In this document: piece after piece, positions 13,938-51,936 of the stretch
Layout: every line of letters begins with the position of its first letter
Numbering within the stretch: the first letter of the stretch is position 1
Source: an uncultured Roseicyclus sp.
GTDB lineage: Bacteria > Pseudomonadota > Alphaproteobacteria > Rhodobacterales > Rhodobacteraceae
Length of the DNA stretch: 64,000 nucleotides
Direction: 5' to 3'
Assembly (NCBI GenBank): GCA_947494975.1
Contig: CANLXA010000002.1
Location: 62,001 to 126,000 of the forward strand
Notes under the pieces: model-generated
What the model was told of the DNA's origin: nothing
Seen by the model: the letters and a program-made list of their open reading frames with translations, nothing else
Databases searched by the model: none
Made by a program: the position numbers and the translations under genes

Positions 13938-13974
13938 GTCCGTCCCCGGGGGCCAAGGCCCCGGTCGATGCGTG

Positions 13975-15720
13975 TCAGGAGCTGACCTGTTCACGCAGGA
14001 TCGAGGCGGTCATCGATACCAACAGGTAGATGCCAGAAAAGACCACAAGTGCAAGAAGCGTATTTTCGAACGCCTTGGGATAGGCCGCCTCATCGGGGGC
14101 AACCGGGAACACACCCATGGAAATATAGAGCGTCTGCCTGTTGGCTTCCGTCCGCGCGCCTTCCATCGCCTGCAAGGCCTCGGTCAGCATCAATTGGCGG
14201 GTTTCCAGATCCGCCCGGGCAATGACCAGTTCGGACTGGATCCGCGCCAGCGAGACTTCTCCCTGCGCCTCTTCGGTCAGTGAACCGCGCAGATCGGAAA
14301 TGACCGCCTCCAACCGGGCGATATTGCTCTGCGCCACCTCAACCCGGGTGGCGTTCGGGCGGTCGGCCGCGGTGATCTCGGCCAGACGCAACCGTTCTTC
14401 GGCCAATTGCATCTCGAAGGTCGCGATCTGACTGAAGACCTGGCTCACTTCTGCCTCGGCCGACAGAACGCCACGTTGCTCCTGCAATTGCAGAACGCGC
14501 ATCTGCGCCGCCAGGGATCGTTCTTCGGCCTCTTCAAAGCTTTCCCGCGCGCCGGACATCTGGTCTTCGCGCAAACGCGATGACATCTGGTCTACCCGCT
14601 CTTCGGCGTACCCGATCAGTGCCTCGGAAAAGGCCTGGCTGGTTTCGGGATCGGCGGCCAGAACTTCCATGCGGACAAGGCCCTCCGTCGGGTCATAGCC
14701 GATCGTGAGGCTGCGCAGATAGGCGCTGTACATCTGCTCCACCGACGCATCGGCGTCCAGCCGGTTCAGCGGATCCATGTTCTCCGACGAAAAATGCCCC
14801 CGGAAATCAAGCTCCTCATCCAGGCGCAGCATTGCTTCGCGGCTTTCAAGGTAGCTTTGCACGGTCACGGATTCCTGCACCGTCGCAAAGCTCGCCCCCC
14901 CGAGCAATCCGCCAAGCCCACCGCCCCCGGCGCCACCGCCTTCGGCCTTCTGGATGACGAATTCGGTGTGTGTCGCGTAAAGCGGTGTTGCCACCGCATA
15001 ATAATAATAACTGACCAGGATTGTCGGCAGCAGGACGAAAAGTGACAGCCGCGTGGCCAGTTGGACAAGCTTGCGCCGGCGGCGCCGGGCAATGTCGCGT
15101 TGGACGTTGATGATCTCCGCAGCCCGGCTTTCGGCACTATGTGCACCGCCCGGTGGTGCGACGGGTGCCGGAACGGCGGGTATCTGGCCAGTCGCCGCGC
15201 GGGCCGGCAATTGCGCCTTGGCCGCGCCTGCGGCTGCCGTTGCATCCGTGGCGTTGGGGTCGTTGACCACCAGTTCCAGCATGCTGGATTGCCCAAACGG
15301 ATCGATGCCGCGCTTGCGCAGCAACCGGATGGCATCGAAATCTGACGAAGCCTGCAGCCCGTGTTTCTGCGCGATACGGCGGGCCATGCGCAATTGGCGG
15401 CCGGTCAAACCTTCGGTGCGGATGGCGGCCAGTTCCTCTTCCACACCAGTTCCCGTGGTCGCAGTGGCCTCGGCCTGTTCGAAGGCTGCAGATCCCGGGA
15501 ATGCCATGTTGCCAAAGCCATCCTCGGTCACGTTCGGCAGGGCGTTGTCGTCGGCAGGCGCGGTCGGTTCAACGCGCTCTGCGGTACCGGGGGGTGGGGG
15601 CGTCACGTCAACGGGTGCGTCTTGTTCAGCCGCCGCTTCCGCCCGGCGAGTTTCGCCGGTGGGCGCAACAGCGTCGCTTCGTCGGATGCGAAACTTTCTA
15701 GCTTTGGGTTTCGTAGTCAT
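13975..15720 (-). CDS. Capsule polysaccharide export inner-membrane protein (KpsE/WcbD-like) with long N-terminal extension
   Basis: A 581-residue protein. Residues 1-100 are low-complexity (Ala, Pro, Glu-rich). A predicted helical region at about 100-150 (GLTGRQLRMARRIAQKHGLQ, RLLRKRGIDPFGQSSMLELV) follows, then a linker, a basic patch (RRRRRK, about 212-217) and TM1 (about 221-243). A long periplasmic region with coiled coil (about 400-500) leads to a C-terminal TM (about 555-575): the KpsE/polysaccharide co-polymerase topology. KpsE proteins bridge the KpsMT exporter to the outer-membrane KpsD. The start is ATG 15720, 23 bases inside the KpsT-like gene. Most KpsE proteins lack the 200-residue extension. 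Confidence 0.9.
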   Translation of the reverse strand: MTTKPKARKFRIRRSDAVAPTGETRRAEAAAEQDAPVDVTPPPPGTAERVEPTAPADDNALPNVTEDGFGNMAFPGSAAFEQAEATATTGTGVEEELAAIRTEGLTGRQLRMARRIAQKHGLQASSDFDAIRLLRKRGIDPFGQSSMLELVVNDPNATDATAAAGAAKAQLPARAATGQIPAVPAPVAPPGGAHSAESRAAEIINVQRDIARRRRRKLVQLATRLSLFVLLPTILVSYYYYAVATPLYATHTEFVIQKAEGGGAGGGGLGGLLGGASFATVQESVTVQSYLESREAMLRLDEELDFRGHFSSENMDPLNRLDADASVEQMYSAYLRSLTIGYDPTEGLVRMEVLAADPETSQAFSEALIGYAEERVDQMSSRLREDQMSGARESFEEAEERSLAAQMRVLQLQEQRGVLSAEAEVSQVFSQIATFEMQLAEERLRLAEITAADRPNATRVEVAQSNIARLEAVISDLRGSLTEEAQGEVSLARIQSELVIARADLETRQLMLTEALQAMEGARTEANRQTLYISMGVFPVAPDEAAYPKAFENTLLALVVFSGIYLLVSMTASILREQVSS

Positions 15721-44618: not shown

Positions 44619-45134
44619 ATGCCTAATCTCTCCGACACCGCCGTTCTTGCCATCGCGGGCGCCTGTCTTGCTGCGCTTTTGCTGTTACTCCTCCTCCGCA
44701 GGCGGAGAAAGCGCGGCAGGCCGGTGGTTATCGACGGCTCGAACGTGATGCACTGGAACGGGGATCGTGCGAGTCTTGCGACGGTACGAGAGGTCATCGC
44801 GCGGTTGCAGGCCCTGGGATACGCGCCGGGCATCATCTTTGACGCGAATGCAGGCTACAAACTGGCGGATCGGTACTTGGACGACCGGCATTTCGCGAAG
44901 CTTCTGAACCTGCCGAGCGACCGGGTGCTGGTGGTGCCGAAGGGCGACCCTGCCGACCCGACCATTCTATCGGCGGCGCGTGATATGGGCGCGCAGGTGC
45001 TGACCAATGACCGGTTCCGCGACTGGGCCGGGGATTTTCCCGAGGTGAAGGTTGCGGGGCATCTGGTGCGGGGCGGGTTTCGGAATGGGGCGCTGTGGAT
45101 TGACGAAAAGGCGCTGAACGGGGTGGGGTCTTAG
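44619..45134 (+). CDS. Membrane-anchored NYN-domain ribonuclease-like protein
   Basis: A 171-residue protein. One N-terminal membrane segment (about residues 8-26, AVLAIAGACLAALLLLLLL) is followed by a basic RRRRKR stop-transfer and a PIN-like NYN domain. Acidic residues of the metal site are seen in VVIDGSNVMHW (Asp39), IIFDANAGY and LTNDRFRDW. NYN proteins related to Zc3h12a cut RNA. The membrane anchor would put the nuclease at the inner face of the membrane. The substrate is unknown. Confidence 0.88.
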   Translation: MPNLSDTAVLAIAGACLAALLLLLLLRRRRKRGRPVVIDGSNVMHWNGDRASLATVREVIARLQALGYAPGIIFDANAGYKLADRYLDDRHFAKLLNLPSDRVLVVPKGDPADPTILSAARDMGAQVLTNDRFRDWAGDFPEVKVAGHLVRGGFRNGALWIDEKALNGVGS

Positions 45135-45181
45135 GCGGGAGGCCGCTCTATTCGCTGCTCGGTCAAGTGAGGCATTTAGCG

Positions 45182-45346
45182 CGTTAACAGCGGCTGCAAG
45201 CCGCCGCGCCATCGACGGGCCGCCCCCCGGCACGTCGATTTGGTTCAGGTTGGTGCTTCGTTCGTTCTGTGGAGGGGCTTGGCTGGCATTAAGTGCCTAG
45301 GAAGGACCGTTGGATCGCCATGCCGCGGCCCGTCGATGGCGCGGGA
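45182..45346 (+). repeat. Dispersed intergenic element, copy A
   Basis: A GCGGCT-GCA-AGCCGC hairpin is followed by a left arm CCGCGCCATCGACGGGCCGC (45204-45223). A middle arm around CGTCGAT (45233-45239) comes next, then the conserved core (CGATTTGGTT, TTGGTGCTTCGTT, TTGGCTGGCATTAAGTGCC). A right arm at 45325-45344 is the perfect 20-base complement of the left arm. The left arm can therefore pair with the middle or the right arm. The same order and core recur in copies B and C. No open frame spans it. Confidence 0.75.
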
Positions 45347-45400
45347 GAAAATGTGAGATCTTAGCGACCTAAGAATGGAGCTATCTGGTCAGTCATGCCA

Positions 45401-46156
45401 CTAATTCTGAAATTTGTGGCCAGACTCCGTCCACCAAGATGCTTTCATCCCGGGTGCAAGATTTGGCAGTGCAAGCAATGTGTCAATTTGCCCAAAGTGC
45501 GAAAAGGAACGACCAATCATTGCGTCAGATATTCCTGCCGAAAACACTGCGGGATCTTCTTCCCCAACGACCATTCGAACCGCTGTCTCCGATGCCTGGT
45601 TCAATATTGCCGCCATTTCCTGCTCACCAATGGGAGCAATGCGCCATCTAAAGGTGGCGAAAAGGCCGCCTGAAATTCTCCAGCAACATATGATGTTTTT
45701 TGTGAGCCAGATGCGGGAGTTCCAATCGCGTGGGTCTGTCGAACTAAAAAAGACGGCGACTTCGGTGCAGCCGCCATTTGGCGGATAGGGAAGCCGGAAT
45801 GACTTAGGGTTCAATGCGGCTTGAGAGCGGGCGCCGCGCGTAATCGGAATGAATCGAATGCTTAAGGCTTGGCTATGTTCTACGGTTTGAAGTGCAGCTT
45901 CACGTCGCCATTTGACGATTTCACGTCTTCCGGCGGGCCTCGGCGGACTGTGTGACGCAAGTTGGCTCGTCAAAGCCCATCTGCAATCGCCACTTGCGTG
46001 CAAGCTAATCTTGGAAGTCGCAGAGACACCTTTGGGCGCGAGATATATGTCAGCACCATTCCTCCATACGGTCCAAGAATCCGAGTACGGAATGTCCTTT
46101 TCCGAAACTTGAAAGCGGAAACGGCTTTCGTCAGACTTCCCTTTTGATTTTACCAC
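45401..46156 (-). CDS. Hypothetical protein, A/T-rich, between two repeat copies
   Basis: A 251-residue protein with a GTG start behind a strong AGGGAAG site. I do not recognise it, but it looks genuinely coding: no stops over 750 bases in A/T-rich DNA, ordered motifs (DSWTVWRNGADIYLAPKGVS, KISLHASGDCRWALTSQL), hydrophobic SRIWLTKNIICCW, and a late EEDPAVFSAGISDAMIGRSF. No signal peptide or clear membrane helix. Base composition differs sharply from its neighbours. It is flanked by direct copies of the dispersed element (45182-45346 and 46196-46386), so it may be horizontally acquired cargo. Confidence 0.75.
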   Translation of the reverse strand: MVKSKGKSDESRFRFQVSEKDIPYSDSWTVWRNGADIYLAPKGVSATSKISLHASGDCRWALTSQLASHSPPRPAGRREIVKWRREAALQTVEHSQALSIRFIPITRGARSQAALNPKSFRLPYPPNGGCTEVAVFFSSTDPRDWNSRIWLTKNIICCWRISGGLFATFRWRIAPIGEQEMAAILNQASETAVRMVVGEEDPAVFSAGISDAMIGRSFSHFGQIDTLLALPNLAPGMKASWWTESGHKFQN

Positions 46157-46195
46157 GTATCTTCCCTTTCCCAGCCCGGAACAGCAGCTTCCGCT

Positions 46196-46386
46196 GCCCG
46201 GGCCATCGCCTGCCCGTCCCGGCGGGCTCCCTCTCGGCATCTTTTGCGTTGCAAAAGAGTCTGTCGGGCAGCGGGCGATTTGGTTGGGTCGGCGAGACGG
46301 ATAGATGTCACACGGACCTGGCTGGCATAAAGTGCCTTTCAGATCTGTCGGTTCGCCACCCCACGGGCAGGCGATGGCCCTCCGGT
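46196..46386 (+). repeat. Dispersed intergenic element, copy B
   Basis: Left arm GGGCCATCGCCTGCCCGT (46200-46217) and right arm ACGGGCAGGCGATGGCCC (46363-46380) are perfect complements. A middle arm CGGGCAGCGGGCGAT (46265-46279) can also pair with the left arm with a small bulge. The conserved core follows the middle arm: CGATTTGGTT, then GGCTGGCATAAAGTGCC. A CTTTTGC-GTT-GCAAAAG hairpin sits between left and middle arms. The arm sequence differs from copy A but complementarity is kept. Confidence 0.72.
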
Positions 46387-46503
46387 GATTCCTGACGCGC
46401 CAAGCCCTGCGCTCTTTGCTTTGATCCGACCCGGGCCGAGGCCCGGTCTACCGAAGAACTGACAAGCCCCGGTGTTCGGGCAGGCGGTGGCCCTCTGTCG
46501 CAC
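46387..46503. other. Gap downstream of uvrB with hairpin and partial arm repeat
   Basis: No gene. CCGGGCC-GA-GGCCCGG (46431-46446) is a strong short hairpin that could help end the uvrB transcript, although no U-run follows. CGGGCAGGCGGTGGCCCTC (46478-46496) nearly duplicates the right arm of copy B, as if another element end were inserted or duplicated here. Confidence 0.45.
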
Positions 46504-48696
46504 TTACCGCCCCCGCCGCGCCTTGCCGCCGCGCATCCCGCCGCGGCCACCGGTGCTCCGCCCGCCTGCCTTCTGCGCGCCCTCCACGGCGGCCTCCACC
46601 GCCGATTGACGCGCCAGCGGGTCGTCGGCAATCGCCAGTTCGACCGTTTCCAGCCGTTTGACCTCGTCGCGCAGGCGCGCCGCTTCTTCGAATTCGAGGT
46701 TCTCGGCCGCCTTGCGCATCTGGTCGCGCAACCCGTCGAGATGGGCTTGCAGGTTCGCGCCCACCAGCGGTTTGTCGACCTTGGCGGTCACGCGGTTCAG
46801 GTCCACGTCGCCCTTGTAGGTGCCCATCATGATGTCATCGACGTTCTTCTTGATCGTCGCGGGCGTGATGCCGTGTTCCTCGTTATAGGCGATCTGCTTG
46901 GCGCGCCTGCGGTCGGTTTCGCGCATGGCGCGTTCCATGGAGCCGGTGATGCGGTCGGCATACATGATCACGCGGCCTTCGGCGTTGCGCGCGGCGCGGC
47001 CGATGGTCTGGACCAGAGAGGTTTCGGAGCGCAAGAAGCCTTCCTTGTCGGCATCGAGGATCGCGACCAGCCCGCATTCGGGGATATCGAGGCCCTCGCG
47101 CAACAGGTTGATCCCGATCAGCACGTCGAAGGCGCCCAGGCGCAGGTCACGCAGGATCTCGATGCGTTCCAGCGTGTCGATGTCGGAGTGCATGTAGCGG
47201 ACGCGGATGCCCTGTTCGTGCATGTATTCGGTGAGGTCCTCGGCCATGCGCTTGGTGAGCGTGGTCACGAGCGTGCGGAAGCCGTCGGCGGCGACCTTGC
47301 GGACCTCGTCGAGCAGATCGTCCACCTGCATGTCGACGGGGCGGATCTCCACCTGCGGGTCGAGAAGGCCGGTGGGGCGGATCACCTGTTCGGTGAAGAC
47401 GCCGCCGGCCTGCTCCAATTCCCAGGCCTGGGGCGTGGCCGAGACGAAGACGGATTGCGGGCGCATGGCGTCCCATTCCTCGAATTTCAGGGGGCGGTTG
47501 TCCATGCAGGACGGCAGGCGGAAGCCGTGTTCGGCGAGCGTGAACTTGCGCCGGTAGTCGCCGCGATACATGCCGCCGATCTGCGGCACGGAGACGTGGG
47601 ATTCATCGGCGAAGACAAGCGCGTTGTCGGGGATGTATTCGAACAGCGTGGGGGGCGGTTCGCCGGGGGCGCGGCCGGTGAGGTAACGCGAATAATTCTC
47701 GATGCCGTTGCAGACGCCGGTGGCCTCCAGCATCTCCAGATCGAAATTCGTGCGCTGCTCGAGGCGCTGGGCCTCCAGCAACTTGCCTTCGCCGATCATC
47801 TGGTCGAGCCGCATCTGAAGCTCGGCTTTGATGCCCTTCATGGCCTGCTGCATCGTGGGGCGGGGCGTGACGTAGTGGGAATTGGCGTAGACGCGGATCT
47901 TTTCGAACGTGTCGGTTTTCTGGCCGGTCAGGGGGTCGAATTCGGTGATGGTTTCCAGCTCCTCGCCGAAGAAGCTGAGCTTCCAGGCGCGGTCTTCAAG
48001 GTGGGCGGGCCAGATCTCGAGGCTGTCGCCCCGCACCCGGAACGTGCCGCGCTGGAAGGCCTGATCGTTGCGGCGGTATTGCTGGGCGACGAGATCGGCG
48101 ATCACCTTGCGCTGGTCGTAGTCGCGCCCGGCGAAGAGGTCTTGCGTCATGGCGCCATAGGTCTCGACCGAGCCGATCCCGTAGATGCAGGAGACCGACG
48201 CCACGATGATCACGTCGTCACGTTCCAGAAGGGCGCGGGTGGCCGAGTGGCGCATCCGGTCGATCTGTTCGTTGATCTGGGATTCTTTTTCTATGTAGGT
48301 GTCGGACCGCGCCACATAGGCTTCGGGCTGGTAGTAATCGTAATAGGACACGAAATACTCGACCGCGTTTTCGGGGAAGAAGCCCTTGAACTCCCCGTAA
48401 AGCTGCGCGGCGAGCGTCTTGTTCGGCGCGAGGATGATGGCGGGGCGCTGGGTTTCCTCGATCACCTTGGCCATGGTGAAGGTCTTGCCGGTGCCGGTCG
48501 CGCCCAGAAGGACCTGATCGTGTTCGCCGTCCAGCACGCCCTGGCTGAGCTCCTTGATCGCGGTGGGCTGGTCGCCCGCCGGTTCGAAATCGGAATGCAT
48601 GATGAATCGCTTGCCGCCCTCCATCTTCAGATGGGCGCGGATGGCATCGACGGCGCGCCCGGTCTCGGGCATCTGTTCGGGCGAGTTGTTGTGCAT
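46504..48696 (-). CDS. uvrB: Excinuclease ABC subunit B
   Basis: A 730-residue helicase-like repair protein that verifies damage after UvrA loading and recruits UvrC. Walker A GATGTGKT (65-72), the beta-hairpin region [16 protein letters not shown], helicase motifs with [12 protein letters not shown] and QTIGRAARN, and a C-terminal UVR motif (about 655-690; [20 protein letters not shown]) are complete. A basic Gly/Arg tail ([13 protein letters not shown]) ends it. No obvious alphaproteobacterial LexA box was found upstream. Confidence 0.98.
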
Positions 48697-49084
48697 GGGG
48701 CTCTCTCTTGCGGAGGTCTATAGAATGGAGCCTCCGGCGCTGCCTGCAAGGGGGCAAACTGTCAGCTGGTGACAGCATGGTGTCAGGAGGCTGGCACGGG
48801 CGTTAACGATTTGCCCATGAATATGGTACAAAAGGTTAACAAAATAAGGGGAATTTTGCCGACTAAACCTTTGCGTTGCCAGCCGCGTAGGCGTAGACCT
48901 GAAGGGCAAGCAGCAGAAGCGGTTGCCGGCCCTTGGCCGTACCCACCCACCCCTCGCTCCCACGGCCAGGGCTGGCAACCAACTCTCCCCCCCAAGTACA
49001 TCGCTGATCCGACCAAATGTATCGCCCATCCAAACCGGGGCAATCTGTGCTAGGCCTTTGCGTGTCTTGTGCAATGCGAAGAAT
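48697..49084. other. Divergent intergenic region with a large imperfect hairpin
   Basis: No convincing gene in 388 bases. It should contain the uvrB promoter and that of the rightward secreted protein. The prominent structure is a long inverted repeat at 48921-48980: GGTTGCCGGCCCTTGGCCGT and ACGGCCAGGGCTGGCAACC, complementary apart from one mismatch and one bulge, around a 21-base pyrimidine-rich loop. Confidence 0.6.
48921..48980. repeat. Large inverted repeat (about 19-base-pair stem)
   Basis: Arms at 48921-48940 and 48962-48980 pair with one mismatch and one bulge around a loop of CCCACC-rich sequence. It could be a terminator-like RNA hairpin, a cruciform or a REP-like sequence. No U-tract follows on either strand. 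A second TTGCCAGCCG stretch shortly upstream echoes the right arm. Confidence 0.6.
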
Positions 49085-50260
49085 ATGATGCGTCTGATCC
49101 TGCCCTGTCTCGCCGCTCTGGCGCTCCCCGGCCTCGCCTGTGCCGATGCCGATCCACCCCGCCCCTTCGATGCCGGTGGCCCGCTGCAGATCAGCGGCCC
49201 GGCGGAAATTGTATTCGACTGGACCACTGACAGATGCGCCGATCACCATTTCGCCGACCTGCCAGTGCGCGCCTTTCGGGGCAGCGACAACCAGATCAAC
49301 CTGATCCTCGGCCACGATGTGACGCGGCGGATGGTCGGACCGGATTTCGACAGCCTGACCGTCTCATGTGACATCCTGCTGACCTCCACCCGGGCGCGGG
49401 ACCCCGACCAGTTCGCCAACATCGAATGGATCGCCGCCACCTATGCCGAAGGCGACACGATCCACGCGCTTTTGCACAACGAATACCAGGGCAATCGCTA
49501 CCCCGAATGCCAGACGGCGGATTACTTCAGCTGCTGGTACAATTCGATCACCTATGCGCGCTCCGAGGATGGCGGGGCCACGTTCGGCTACCCGGTCGCG
49601 CCGCCCGCTCACCTGGTGGCCTCCATCCCGGAACCCTACGCGCCCGACGAAGGCATCTTCGGCGCGTTCAGCCCGTCCAACATCCTCGCCCATGACGGGC
49701 ACTACTACGCCTTTCTCAAGATCCAGACCTATCCCCTTGGCACGCAGCACACCTGCCTGATGCGAACCGAGACTCTCGGCGATCCGGACAGCTGGCGCTA
49801 TTGGGACGGGGTCGGGTTCAACGGCCGTTTCGCCGATCCCTATCGCGATGACCTGCGCGCCATGCGCGCCACCACCTGCACCCCCGTCGCGCTCCCCCAG
49901 ATTGCGCAGATGTATGAAGGGGTGACGTGGAACACCGAGCTGCAGCAATTCATCCTGATCGGCACAAGCTCCGATCCGTCGCGCAATCCCGACCCGTTCG
50001 GGTTCTACTACGCGCTGTCCGACGACCTGATCACATGGGAGCCACGTGTGCCGCTTCTGGAGGTGCGCCTGCCCTGGCGGGCGACGGGGCGCGAGACGGT
50101 CTACCTCTACCCCACGTTGATCGACCACGACGCCGAGGGCGCGAATTTCGAGACCTCCGGCGCGGAGGCCTGGCTCTACTTCACCCGCCTCAATTTCGGC
50201 TCCGGCGACCTGGACCGGGACCTGATGCGTGTGCCGGTGCGGATCGGGGCGGGGGAATAG
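49085..50260 (+). CDS. Exported beta-propeller-like protein, possible glycosidase relative
   Basis: A 391-residue protein with a signal peptide (about residues 1-20, LPCLAALALPGLACA; the Cys near the end could also be a lipoprotein cue but lacks a proper lipobox). The mature part has repeated aromatic/Asp blocks such as ILAHDGHYYAFLK, SWRYWDGVGFN and GFYYALSDDLITWEPR that resemble blades of five-bladed GH43/GH32-type propellers. No catalytic triad can be assigned. Several Cys pairs suggest periplasmic disulphides. Enzyme activity is uncertain. Confidence 0.7.
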   Translation: MMRLILPCLAALALPGLACADADPPRPFDAGGPLQISGPAEIVFDWTTDRCADHHFADLPVRAFRGSDNQINLILGHDVTRRMVGPDFDSLTVSCDILLTSTRARDPDQFANIEWIAATYAEGDTIHALLHNEYQGNRYPECQTADYFSCWYNSITYARSEDGGATFGYPVAPPAHLVASIPEPYAPDEGIFGAFSPSNILAHDGHYYAFLKIQTYPLGTQHTCLMRTETLGDPDSWRYWDGVGFNGRFADPYRDDLRAMRATTCTPVALPQIAQMYEGVTWNTELQQFILIGTSSDPSRNPDPFGFYYALSDDLITWEPRVPLLEVRLPWRATGRETVYLYPTLIDHDAEGANFETSGAEAWLYFTRLNFGSGDLDRDLMRVPVRIGAGE

Positions 50261-50278
50261 GCGTAAGAGGTCGGGTTT

Positions 50279-50323
50279 GAGCCCAAAGTGCCGGACGCAA
50301 CGGCACGCTCAGAGGCCCCTTTT
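50279..50323 (+). terminator. Predicted factor-independent terminator
   Basis: GTGCCG-GACGCAA-CGGCAC (50288-50306) is extended by outer GAGC/GCTC and followed by GGCCCCTTTTC. It stands 18 bases after the stop of the exported propeller-like gene and would end its transcript. The segment GGCACGCTCAGAGGC is shared with the leuA attenuator region (28640-28654), probably by chance of similar stems. Confidence 0.6.
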
Positions 50324-50490
50324 CATCTAGAAGGCAAAGCGGGTGGCAGCGCCGCCGCCACTACCACTTTGCATCTCTGTCGTGTCTCTCAAAAACAACG
50401 TTGCACCCATTTGTTTGCGAATAGCGGAAACAAGTATTTCAGGCGTCCAAACCCGCCCTTACCGTTAGGTCAAACACCAGGTGTAACGTC

Positions 50491-51453
50491 ATGAATATTC
50501 AATCGATCACAAGTCGTGGACTTGCGGCGGCCATCATTGCGGTATCTGCACAAAGCGCCATCGCACAATCCGACCCGCTATCCACAGGCCGCGTTCTGGA
50601 ATTCAGCTATGGCAGCGAGATGGTCCTCAACACGCTGCAAGACCAGCTTACTACACCGAACAATTTTGGCGCCGGGCCATTCCCAGCGGGACCTACCACT
50701 CAGAGCACCAGGACATTGGACGTGGGCTCTGGCGAGCATTTCGCGCTTTCCTACAGCCAGGATCTGTTTGGATCCAGTCGGGCCTTCGTAGAAATATCCC
50801 ACAGTGAAACCAGCGGTGGTGGCTTGGCGGATGCGCGCGGATTGGGCGACACGACCTTCCCCGGCTCATGGGACGATGGCAATCTTATTAGTAACAGTAA
50901 CGTCGTCGCAATCGAATTACTCGATCGTCAAACATTGCTGACCGCCGGAGCTGAGGTTGCCTCTAATGCCGGATTTACGTTTTCCACTGGATTTCAAGTT
51001 GCATACCTTGAGCACGAGAGCCAGCTTGAGCGAAGCCCAATCCAACGATCCGCACTTATCGAAACGTCCAACCGCATGTACGGCTTCTTCGGGCGAGCCA
51101 TGCACTACACTTCGCTTGGTCATGGCGGCGGATTGCGGGTTACCGGAACCATTGGCGTGCTCGAAAACTCCTTCGACTACTATTATCTCAATACCGCCGG
51201 CGCATCTGTGACCCAGGAAATCTCCACTTCTGGAATCGACACAGTGTTTTCGGTTGGATTAACAGCCCGTTACGAACACTCGCTCACCGAGCGCACGATG
51301 CTGACCGCGGAAATTGGTTACGATGGCTTTTATGGCGTCGTGAATGGATTTGACACCTTCCTGGACCGACTTGGCACAGACACGGTCGCCCATATTGATC
51401 GCGATCACATCGGTTCGACTCACGTTTCATTGGGCCTTGTCCACCGCTTCTAG
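50491..51453 (+). CDS. Outer-membrane beta-barrel protein, unknown function
   Basis: A 320-residue protein with a signal peptide (about 1-25, ending SAIAQ). The mature sequence has many amphipathic strands with Gly/Asn/Asp turns and ends in STHVSLGLVHRF, with the C-terminal Phe recognised by the BAM complex. Composition is A/T-richer than most of the window. No family recognised; it could be a porin-like or adhesin-like barrel. The transcript begins in the preceding 170 bases. Confidence 0.75.
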   Translation: MNIQSITSRGLAAAIIAVSAQSAIAQSDPLSTGRVLEFSYGSEMVLNTLQDQLTTPNNFGAGPFPAGPTTQSTRTLDVGSGEHFALSYSQDLFGSSRAFVEISHSETSGGGLADARGLGDTTFPGSWDDGNLISNSNVVAIELLDRQTLLTAGAEVASNAGFTFSTGFQVAYLEHESQLERSPIQRSALIETSNRMYGFFGRAMHYTSLGHGGGLRVTGTIGVLENSFDYYYLNTAGASVTQEISTSGIDTVFSVGLTARYEHSLTERTMLTAEIGYDGFYGVVNGFDTFLDRLGTDTVAHIDRDHIGSTHVSLGLVHRF

Positions 51454-51936
51454 ACGCTATTTGGGGTCATTTCTCGAGAAGTCGGCAATCAGTGAATACG
51501 TTCGGCACGCCCTGCGCTTACTCGCGCTCCCAGACGAACATAGACTTGAAAGAACCGCTTGTGGGCAAGACGCCCAAGAGTTGTCCTTTGCACAACTGCA
51601 GCGAACGGCAGGTTTGTCCCGCATAGCCGGACATTTGGGCTTTGCCCCAGCGGGTTAACGGCGGCGAAGCCGCCCCGCCATCGCCGGGCCCACCCATGGC
51701 CCGGCGATTTGGTGAAGTTTGGTGCTTCGTTTCCATGGGGCGACGATTTGGCTGGCATGAAGTGCCATATTCAGAGGTTCGGATCGCCGGTCCTGGGCCC
51801 ATCGATTGCGGGGCTCAGCGCAGCCTCGAACGGCCCCTTCGTCGCACACCCGCCGCCCCCCCGCGACACCATTCCCGTTGCCAACGGGGCGCGCCTTGCC
51901 CATAAGATCGCCCAAGCTCGATCCGGAGGTCGCCCC
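51454..51936. other. Intergenic region carrying repeat copy C
   Basis: No gene recognised in 483 bases. The first 190 bases hold no clear feature apart from a TGCAGCGAACGGCAGG stretch near 51598, which resembles dispersed intergenic sequences I associate with roseobacters. Copy C of the element fills 51653-51815. The promoter and GGAGGT ribosome site of the complex I subunit gene come last. Confidence 0.55.
51653..51815 (+). repeat. Dispersed intergenic element, copy C
   Basis: Same order as copy A: GGCGGC-GAA-GCCGCC hairpin, left arm GCCATCGCCGGGCCC (51677-51691), middle arm GGCCCGGCGAT (51698-51708) that pairs perfectly over 11 bases with the left arm, core CGATTTGGT, TTTGGTGCTTCGTTT and TTGGCTGGCATGAAGTGCC. 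The right arm GGGCCCATCGATTGC (51795-51809) pairs with the left arm with three mismatches, so the outer pairing is decayed while the inner one is perfect. Confidence 0.72.

What the first reader, a model, noticed from the sequence alone, without database searches (positions are those of the whole stretch)
45182..51815. A dispersed intergenic element with a three-arm, mutually exclusive fold
Three copies (45182-45346, 46196-46386, 51653-51815) lie on the same strand and share order and core: a left arm beginning near GCCATCG, a middle arm, CGATTTGGT, a TTGGTGCTTCGTT stretch (A and C), GGCTGGCAT-N-AAGTGCC, then a right arm. The left arm can pair with the middle arm or the right arm. The arms differ in sequence between A and B, yet the outer pairing is perfect in each (20 and 18 bases). 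That is the mark of selected base-pairing or of ongoing repair between arms. In C the inner pairing is perfect and the outer one decayed. It could be a small RNA, a switch, a REP/MITE-like unit or a protein-binding cruciform.
Basis: seen in the sequence. Interest (0 to 1): 0.8.

Follow-up and report, generated by a model that had tools for sequence, protein, structure and literature searches.

The report
Dispersed four-arm hairpin element
The three matching stretches are copies of a discrete piece of non-coding DNA, about 170 bases long, that is scattered between genes in many bacteria of one family and keeps its folded shape while its letters change; it looks like mobile DNA, but what moves it is not known.

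Summary
L-M and R1-R2 are palindromic units in inverted order, so L pairs with R2 and M with R1 (long hairpin), or L with M (clover). In 33 copies the long helices vary in concert. P1 occurs in 72 of 110 rows against 10 of 550 resampled stretches. A covariance model hits 13 of 13 genomes of the genus, 43 of 120 in the family, and 2 of 142 drawn class-wide, both of this family; one genome gives 143 rows. Copies avoid genes, lie about 40 nt past stop codons, and show sharp ends and no target-site duplication. In nine relatives the window's sites lack it, except one weak copy near B. Best reading: a REPIN-like non-autonomous mobile element. RAYT-type transposases, which define REPINs, were found in only 1 of 12 element-rich genomes, so it is not filed as a REPIN. 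No Rfam match.

The parts
45175..45347 (+). copy A, whole element (ends approximate)
   Evidence: model R1 hit 45204-45345, 140 bits; P1 scan; end consensus of the family
45179..45209 (+). P1 bulged hairpin of A (stem GCGCG, bulge TTAACA, stem GCGGCT, loop)
45204..45223 (+). L arm of A
   Evidence: 20 bp perfect inverted match to 45325-45344
45229..45243 (+). M arm of A, ends in the conserved CGATTTGG
45250..45297 (+). core of A, TTGGTGCTT ... CATTAAGTGCC
45310..45324 (+). R1 arm of A
45325..45344 (+). R2 arm of A
46170..46386 (+). copy B, whole element (ends approximate), variant with an extra hairpin in the L-M loop
   Evidence: partial model hit 46274-46357, 32 bits; P1 scan; 18 bp outer pairing; fold z -5.46
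46174..46203 (+). P1 bulged hairpin of B
46200..46217 (+). L arm of B
46232..46267 (+). extra hairpin of the B-type variant
46363..46380 (+). R2 arm of B
51645..51816 (+). copy C, whole element (ends approximate)
   Evidence: model R1 hit 51673-51814, 128 bits; P1 scan
51650..51678 (+). P1 bulged hairpin of C
51680..51690 (+). L arm of C
51698..51708 (+). M arm of C, perfect pairing with L

Best explanation
It is a small non-autonomous mobile element, about 170 nt, of one family of Rhodobacterales, built like a REPIN: two palindromic units (L-M and R1-R2) in inverted order around a conserved core, with an extra bulged hairpin (P1) at the 5' end. SHOWN by sequence comparison: dispersal, structure kept while letters change, intergenic position just past gene ends, sharp ends, no target-site duplication, difference between relatives at the same sites, no detectable Y1 (RAYT/IS200-type) transposase in most element-rich genomes tested. 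INFERRED: that it moves at all, and that an unidentified enzyme encoded elsewhere recognises a single-stranded folded form (ssDNA at the replication fork, or RNA), copies it and inserts it in intergenic DNA. The clover form (P1, L:M, R1:R2) may be the recognised one and the long hairpin the stored one, as was proposed for REPINs. Tandem copies probably arise by later local duplication that includes flanking DNA.
For: Copy number: 13 of 13 genus genomes, 1-36 rows each with opposite-strand echoes counted; 43 of 120 genomes drawn from the family; 143 rows in G046, where 150 candidates were scored. Concerted change: 76 cells with both sides changed against 25.2 in shuffles, covariation score 0.197 against 0.086; among 26 representatives under 80% identity, pair 20:128 shows GC 15, TA 7, CG 1, AT 1 and 2 mismatches, and 34:120 shows GC 20, TA 5 and 1 mismatch. 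P1 in 72 of 110 rows against 10 of 550 resampled stretches, with many stem sequences; in 67 of the 72 the bulge fits an A-rich, CA-type motif that I chose after seeing the bulges. Sharp ends. 0 of 110 rows overlap a called gene by 60 nt or more; 7 of 83 classified lie between divergent genes, against 27 of 113 background gaps of 50 nt or more and 13 of 42 of 200 nt or more. In nine relatives compared, the model finds no copy at sites A and C and one weak copy (35 bits) near site B in G007. Copy C has a near-identical sister at G000:C1:1144422 that shares about 30 nt of 3' flank, of which 17 nt also occur at site C in G010, which lacks the element. Same-site replacement by another subfamily in the opposite orientation between two strains of one species.
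Against: No movement has been seen and no mobilising enzyme identified. No Y1_Tnp match at E <= 0.001 in G000, G009, G010 or G046. Reverse transcriptases show no clear association (17 of 43 against 22 of 77). Wobble counts do not say which strand or molecule folds: G.T against A.C is 44/83 in L:R2, 29/121 in M:R1 (85 of the 121 in two columns that are not real pairs) and 166/71 in the core. Two of five measures, and the same two, do not exceed shuffles (pairs with a change on both sides; further pair types). No fully clean empty site was found: in the best pair, G000 has other, P1-like residue where G010 has the element (by eye). The fold is only modestly better than shuffles for A and C (z -2.6).
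Confidence: 0.6

Rival explanations
1. A functional 3'-end element: a bidirectional hairpin that ends or protects transcripts and is kept for the host.
For: Median distance from the neighbouring gene end to the element is about 40 nt in both tandem classes; GC-rich stable folds.
Against: No T-run after the 3' end: T in 63 of 85 copies at the first base, 33 of 85 at the second, background after that; difference between close relatives at the same site; a terminator would not need the conserved unpaired motifs (inference).
Confidence: 0.13
2. A dispersed small-RNA or cis-regulatory RNA family.
For: Covarying helices with conserved unpaired motifs.
Against: No shared neighbouring gene family that I recognised in a flank-ORF comparison, apart from two locus pairs not followed up; all orientations (33 same, 22 opposite, 21 convergent, 7 divergent); no promoter-like site in 45100-46500, though only 0.5 were expected by chance; no Rfam match.
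Confidence: 0.09
3. A recombination site (folded single strand or cruciform) at which accessory genes are exchanged.
For: A and B bracket a gene; seven of nine relatives have a short junction or other genes there and two were not examined; two synteny breaks between plasmids lie near copies.
Against: Only 15 of 110 rows have another row within 1.5 kb (many loci reach only about 1 kb either side); the same gene junctions vary in relatives where the model finds no element. No recombinase was sought by name.
Confidence: 0.1
4. A conventional MITE moved by a DDE transposase of a resident insertion sequence.
For: Small, inverted-repeat, many copies, non-coding.
Against: No target-site duplication in 72 copies (best z 2.9 among 960 combinations); the outer ends are not a simple terminal inverted repeat. 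Insertion sequences of the genome were not searched for matching ends.
Confidence: 0.08

Closest known systems
REPINs (REP doublets forming hairpins) of RAYT-bearing bacteria, PMC3116915 (passages read)
   Same: Two palindromic units in inverted order around a spacer, extragenic, predicted long hairpin versus clover fold, tandem clusters that include flanking sequence.
   Different: Longer, with a 5' bulged hairpin and a long conserved core; Y1_Tnp found in only 1 of 12 element-rich genomes, and no copy near any of the four Y1 loci fetched; no GTAG-type tag seen by eye in the end consensus.
CGTC-tagged REPs of Alphaproteobacteria, PMC3733652 (passages read)
   Same: Small palindromes in Alphaproteobacteria for which no dedicated transposase is known.
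   Different: REPs in that paper are 20-40 bp, this kind with an unpaired CGTC tag and mostly CCA tails; our unit is about 170 nt, with four arms and other ends. The paper's main text does not contain the words Rhodobacter, Roseobacter, Ruegeria or Paracoccus.
ERIC, RUP, BOX and other small bacterial repeats (recalled; PMC2229807 seen in a search listing only)
   Same: About 100-170 nt, intergenic, able to form hairpins, thought non-autonomous.
   Different: Likeness was not tested; other lineages.
Mobile/repeat sequence candidates such as MRSC-65-2, PMC11109978 (passages read)
   Same: Structured, covarying, many copies per genome; judged selfish by its authors.
   Different: A single long stem with a UYCCGG repeat, in diverse phyla; here a four-arm unit found, as far as searched, in one family.

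Membership tests
REPIN | two palindromic units in inverted order forming a hairpin | tested here: met
   L:R2 and M:R1 pairing in 33 copies; L:M pairs in 93% of cells
REPIN | extragenic, many copies, tandem clusters | tested here: met
REPIN | RAYT (Y1_Tnp, PF01797) gene in the genome, flanked by copies | tested here: not met
   PF01797 in 2 of 13 genus genomes, both weak, one over the cut-off; in 1 of 12 element-rich genomes, G127; no model hit at E <= 0.1 in the four Y1 loci fetched
REPIN | GTAG-type tag at the palindrome end | tested here: not met
   by eye on the end consensus, about CCMAGC ... GGGGCTT
CGTC-tagged REP | 20-40 bp palindrome with unpaired CGTC tag and CCA tail | tested here: not met
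   unit length and ends, by eye, against passages of PMC3733652
MITE of a DDE insertion sequence | target-site duplication | tested here: not met
   72 copies, best z 2.9 among 960 combinations
MITE of a DDE insertion sequence | terminal inverted repeats shared with a resident insertion sequence | not tested
Rfam structured RNA | match to a curated family | tested here: not met
   window at gathering score: two tRNAs; eight loci of the host genome at E <= 1: a tRNA and a sub-threshold match on the same tRNA
Intrinsic terminator | GC-rich stem followed by a T-run | tested here: not met
   no T-run in the end profile; in 45100-46500, three terminator-like matches, 1.5 expected, one of them inside B
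Integron attC site | R and L boxes with extrahelical bases, used by IntI | not tested
   considered by eye only; GTTAAC occurs at some P1 bulges and not at others

The most novel reading that the evidence does not exclude
A non-autonomous element replicated by an unrecognised bacterial activity that reads a folded single strand (P1 bulge plus four-arm core) and is neither a RAYT nor a detectable reverse transcriptase; in effect a new class of structure-guided mobile nucleic acid whose four arms co-evolve freely in sequence.
Probability: 0.2. Interest if true: 0.8.

Novelty: new variant of a known kind. Interest (0 to 1): 0.5.

Why it matters
REPIN spread is attributed to RAYT transposases. A family with the same two-state architecture, with 143 model rows in one genome and no detectable RAYT there, suggests that some other activity can spread folded intergenic elements, or that the enzyme was lost in several lineages. 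The high-copy genome and the strain-level differences on Pseudosulfitobacter plasmids make that testable in marine bacteria.

Tried and rejected
Rejected or not supported: Rfam family; RAYT mobilisation in the present genomes; reverse transcriptase as a general partner; DDE-type insertion with a target-site duplication; a common neighbouring gene (from the first 25 clusters printed I judged by eye that most were antisense ORFs or orthologous or overlapping loci; two locus pairs, L039 with L050/L077 and L045 with L054, may share a real gene and were not followed up); phages (no match to copy A at E <= 0.01 among 50,697 records).

Inconclusive: which strand folds. Orientation along replicons: if each contig starts at its origin, 50 copies are co-directional with replication and 20 opposite in seven genomes. 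But local GC skew gives 13:12 in G009 and 7:4 in G001, and the skew profile of G009 is mixed. In G046, after merging tandem copies, contig C1 has 32 + and 7 -, C3 has 13 - and 3 +, while C2 (12:11) and C4 (7:6) are balanced. The G046 figures use 111 listed rows of 143. I treat all this as suggestive only.

Counting caveats: the 110 rows come from the best 150 of 176 model hits after removing overlaps; one row (L142:566-705:-) is an opposite-strand echo that I noticed afterwards, and some rows are orthologous pairs. In one search, 27 of the 110 had no neighbour called on one side. The gene caller found 28 of the 30 annotated genes of L141 and made one extra call (one search printed this before it stopped on an error; one search is the same caller). 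Its background gaps come from G000 and one plasmid, not from all the genomes of the copies. The alignments are fitted to the model, so they lean to the structure; one search used a plain MAFFT alignment. The 33 copies of the model were found by BLAST with copy A. 'Resampled' means first-order Markov resampling. I assume that searches drew the same 120 genomes; the lists agree where shown. Two of the 39 reverse-transcriptase genomes, G046 and G052, are below the family cut-off. In some searches stricter filters and few scored candidates make the counts lower bounds. My notebook says 2-36 rows per genome and 9 of 11 for G001 by GC skew; the calls say 1-36, and 7:4 by local skew (9:2 only under the origin assumption).

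Literature: eight searches listed no description of this family that I recognised; PMC8632094 and PMC2864571 mention other Rhodobacterales motifs (passages only). Most subscription papers are not held, and no supplement was read.

Full report
CHECKING THE OBSERVATION. Copy A has a perfect 20-bp outer pairing, B an 18-bp one, and C a perfect 11-bp inner pairing as its only run of 9 bp or more. Searching the host genome (G000, 4.55 Mb, 9 contigs) with A gives 14 places at E <= 0.001, itself included. A scan of the window finds it on the + strand at the three copies only, and once on the - strand; 20 first-order resamples of the window gave 16 such hits on both strands together, so the scan alone is moderate evidence.

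ANATOMY. From 5' to 3': about CCMA, P1 (stem, bulge such as TTAACA or AATCAA, second stem, loop mostly of three or four bases), L arm, short loop, M arm ending in CGATTTGG, a core with TTGGYGC and CATAAAGYGCC, R1 arm after GTTGGATCG, R2 arm, and an end about GGGGCTT. By eye, R1-R2 reads as the reverse complement of L-M, so the whole is two palindromic units in inverted order. That is why L can pair with R2 or M, and M with L or R1. The information content falls to background about 11 bases before the end of the first P1 stem strand and 2 bases after the last model position (85 best rows, of which those with a parsed P1 on the 5' side), so the unit is discrete, about 170 nt. B belongs to a variant with an additional hairpin between L and M.

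BASE PAIRING. On a plain MAFFT alignment of 33 copies (A3), the long-hairpin structure has 84.4% of cells paired (shuffled 76.4%), 76 cells with both sides changed (shuffled 25.2) and a covariation score of 0.197 (shuffled 0.086); sliding the partners lowers all of these. Two measures do not exceed shuffles: pairs with a change on both sides (13 against 11.6) and further pair types (28 against 26.6). Two columns of M:R1 (30:124 and 31:123) are mostly unpaired. The clover alternative scores lower but is also above shuffles (0.108 against 0.086, reached by 2 of 500). Thinned to 26 representatives under 80% identity, pairs 3-6 with 141-144, 20:128, 34:120 and others keep two to four Watson-Crick types. 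In G046, where the arms are of another sequence, the structure pairs in 85.7% of cells of 42 copies (shuffled 82.5%; covariation score 0.107 against 0.061), again with the same two measures not above shuffles, and on an alignment fitted to the model. P1 was tested in the 42 bases upstream of the model plus its first 10: 72 of 110 rows pass a strict score that does not ask for any bulge sequence, against 10 of 550 resampled stretches; 67 of the 72 bulges fit an A-rich, CA-type motif. Subfamilies exist with other arms. The folding energy alone is only modestly unusual (z -2.57, -5.46 and -2.58 for A, B and C as RNA, -3.30 for A as DNA). Repair between arms could also keep the arms alike; but M and R1 keep differences from L and R2 that are matched to each other at several pairs, which such repair alone would not favour (inference).

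DISTRIBUTION. The covariance model R1 (142 positions, from the second P1 strand to R2) finds matches in 13 of 13 genomes of the genus, 1 to 36 rows each; some rows are weak opposite-strand echoes of the palindrome. BLAST with copy A had found 17 of 41 genomes, the host's own included. In the family, 43 of 120 genomes (one per genus) match at E <= 1e-6. Of 142 genomes drawn over the class, 2 match at E <= 1e-5, both of this family. G046 has 143 rows at E <= 1e-5 out of 150 candidates scored, with tandem neighbours 229-373 nt apart among the 111 rows that I could read. Copies also lie on plasmids: copy A matches 92 of 72,556 records, 89 of Pseudosulfitobacter and 3 of Salipiger; one 79.7-kb plasmid holds five. 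None in 50,697 phage records. A named relative, Pseudaestuariivita atlantica, carries two in tandem.

CONTEXT. With a codon-usage gene caller that found 28 of 30 annotated genes on L141, 0 of 110 rows overlap a called gene by 60 nt or more. Of 83 rows with genes called on both sides, 33 lie between genes in the element's direction, 22 between genes against it, 21 between convergent and 7 between divergent genes (3 of these 7 are one tandem array). Gaps of 50 nt or more in eight long stretches were 67 tandem, 27 divergent and 19 convergent; of 200 nt or more, 20, 13 and 9. The element starts or ends a median of about 40 nt from the neighbouring gene end in the two tandem classes.

TURNOVER. Of the 12 relatives in the genus, nine were compared around sites A, B and C (G005, G008 and G009 were not). 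At A-B, four have short junctions (G002, G006, G011, G012), three have other genes (G001, G007, G010), and two have longer stretches that I did not examine (G003, G004). The model, at E <= 0.1, finds no copy in eight of the nine stretches and one weak copy (35 bits) near site B in G007. Between two strains of Pseudosulfitobacter pseudonitzschiae with flanks about 97.7% identical, one intergenic site holds an element of this family in one strain and a different subfamily (48 bits) in the opposite orientation in the other. Copy C and the copy at G000:C1:1144422 differ, by eye, at four places over the element and near flanks, and share at least 20 nt on the 5' side and about 30 nt on the 3' side; 17 nt of the 3' flank also occur at site C in G010, which lacks the element, so C looks like the donor. 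The best inter-species pair (L148/L153) is not a clean empty site, since G000 has P1-like residue there.

MECHANISM. No target-site duplication is seen in 72 copies, which speaks against a DDE transposase. Y1 transposases, which move IS200/IS605 elements and are thought to move REPINs, give no match at E <= 0.001 in G000, G009, G010 and G046 and are found in 1 of 12 element-rich genomes; no copy lies near the four Y1 loci fetched. Reverse transcriptases occur in 17 of 43 element-bearing and 22 of 77 other family genomes, no clear link. What is left, by inference, is a folded single strand recognised by an unidentified enzyme, or an enzyme lost since. Orientation along replicons gives mixed results (see Tried and rejected).

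COMPARISON. The closest described kind is the REPIN (PMC3116915, passages read), whose authors also drew a stable hairpin and a less stable clover and suggested the clover as the form recognised. The family works like a REPIN in architecture but fails the RAYT criterion, so I do not file it as one. CGTC-tagged REPs (PMC3733652, passages read) are an earlier example of palindromes without a dedicated transposase in Alphaproteobacteria, but they are short and end differently. I rate it a new variant of a known kind.

Noticed in passing
window 45134-46504 and 50260-51890: The gaps between the NYN-like gene and uvrB, and between a sialidase-like gene and a small conserved gene (names recalled from the translations, not searched), hold different genes in different relatives: two gene-exchange hotspots, with or without the element.
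   Followed up: partly
L005, L047, L050, L177, L260 flanks: By eye, a second short hairpin repeat with a GTAG-like tag (GTAGGGCGGGACAAGTCCCGCCC type) often lies beside the element, and in one G046 array it is part of the tandem unit.
   Followed up: no
L137:13976 and L146:1326: Short derivatives with P1 and one hairpin only, as if the stretch from M to R1 had been lost.
   Followed up: no
L039 with L050/L077; L045 with L054: Loci from different genomes around copies share an ORF cluster that may be a real accessory gene.
   Followed up: no
G007:C1 about 604370-605740 (L129): At the site of copy C, G007 has an ORF with many repeats of a motif like KFMAKFPFAHLVPG.
   Followed up: no
window 13969-13997, - strand: A further P1-like bulged hairpin not followed by the rest of the element; probably chance.
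   Followed up: no
G000:C4:326644-327249: The host genome has one reverse-transcriptase domain (E 8.6e-19).
   Followed up: no
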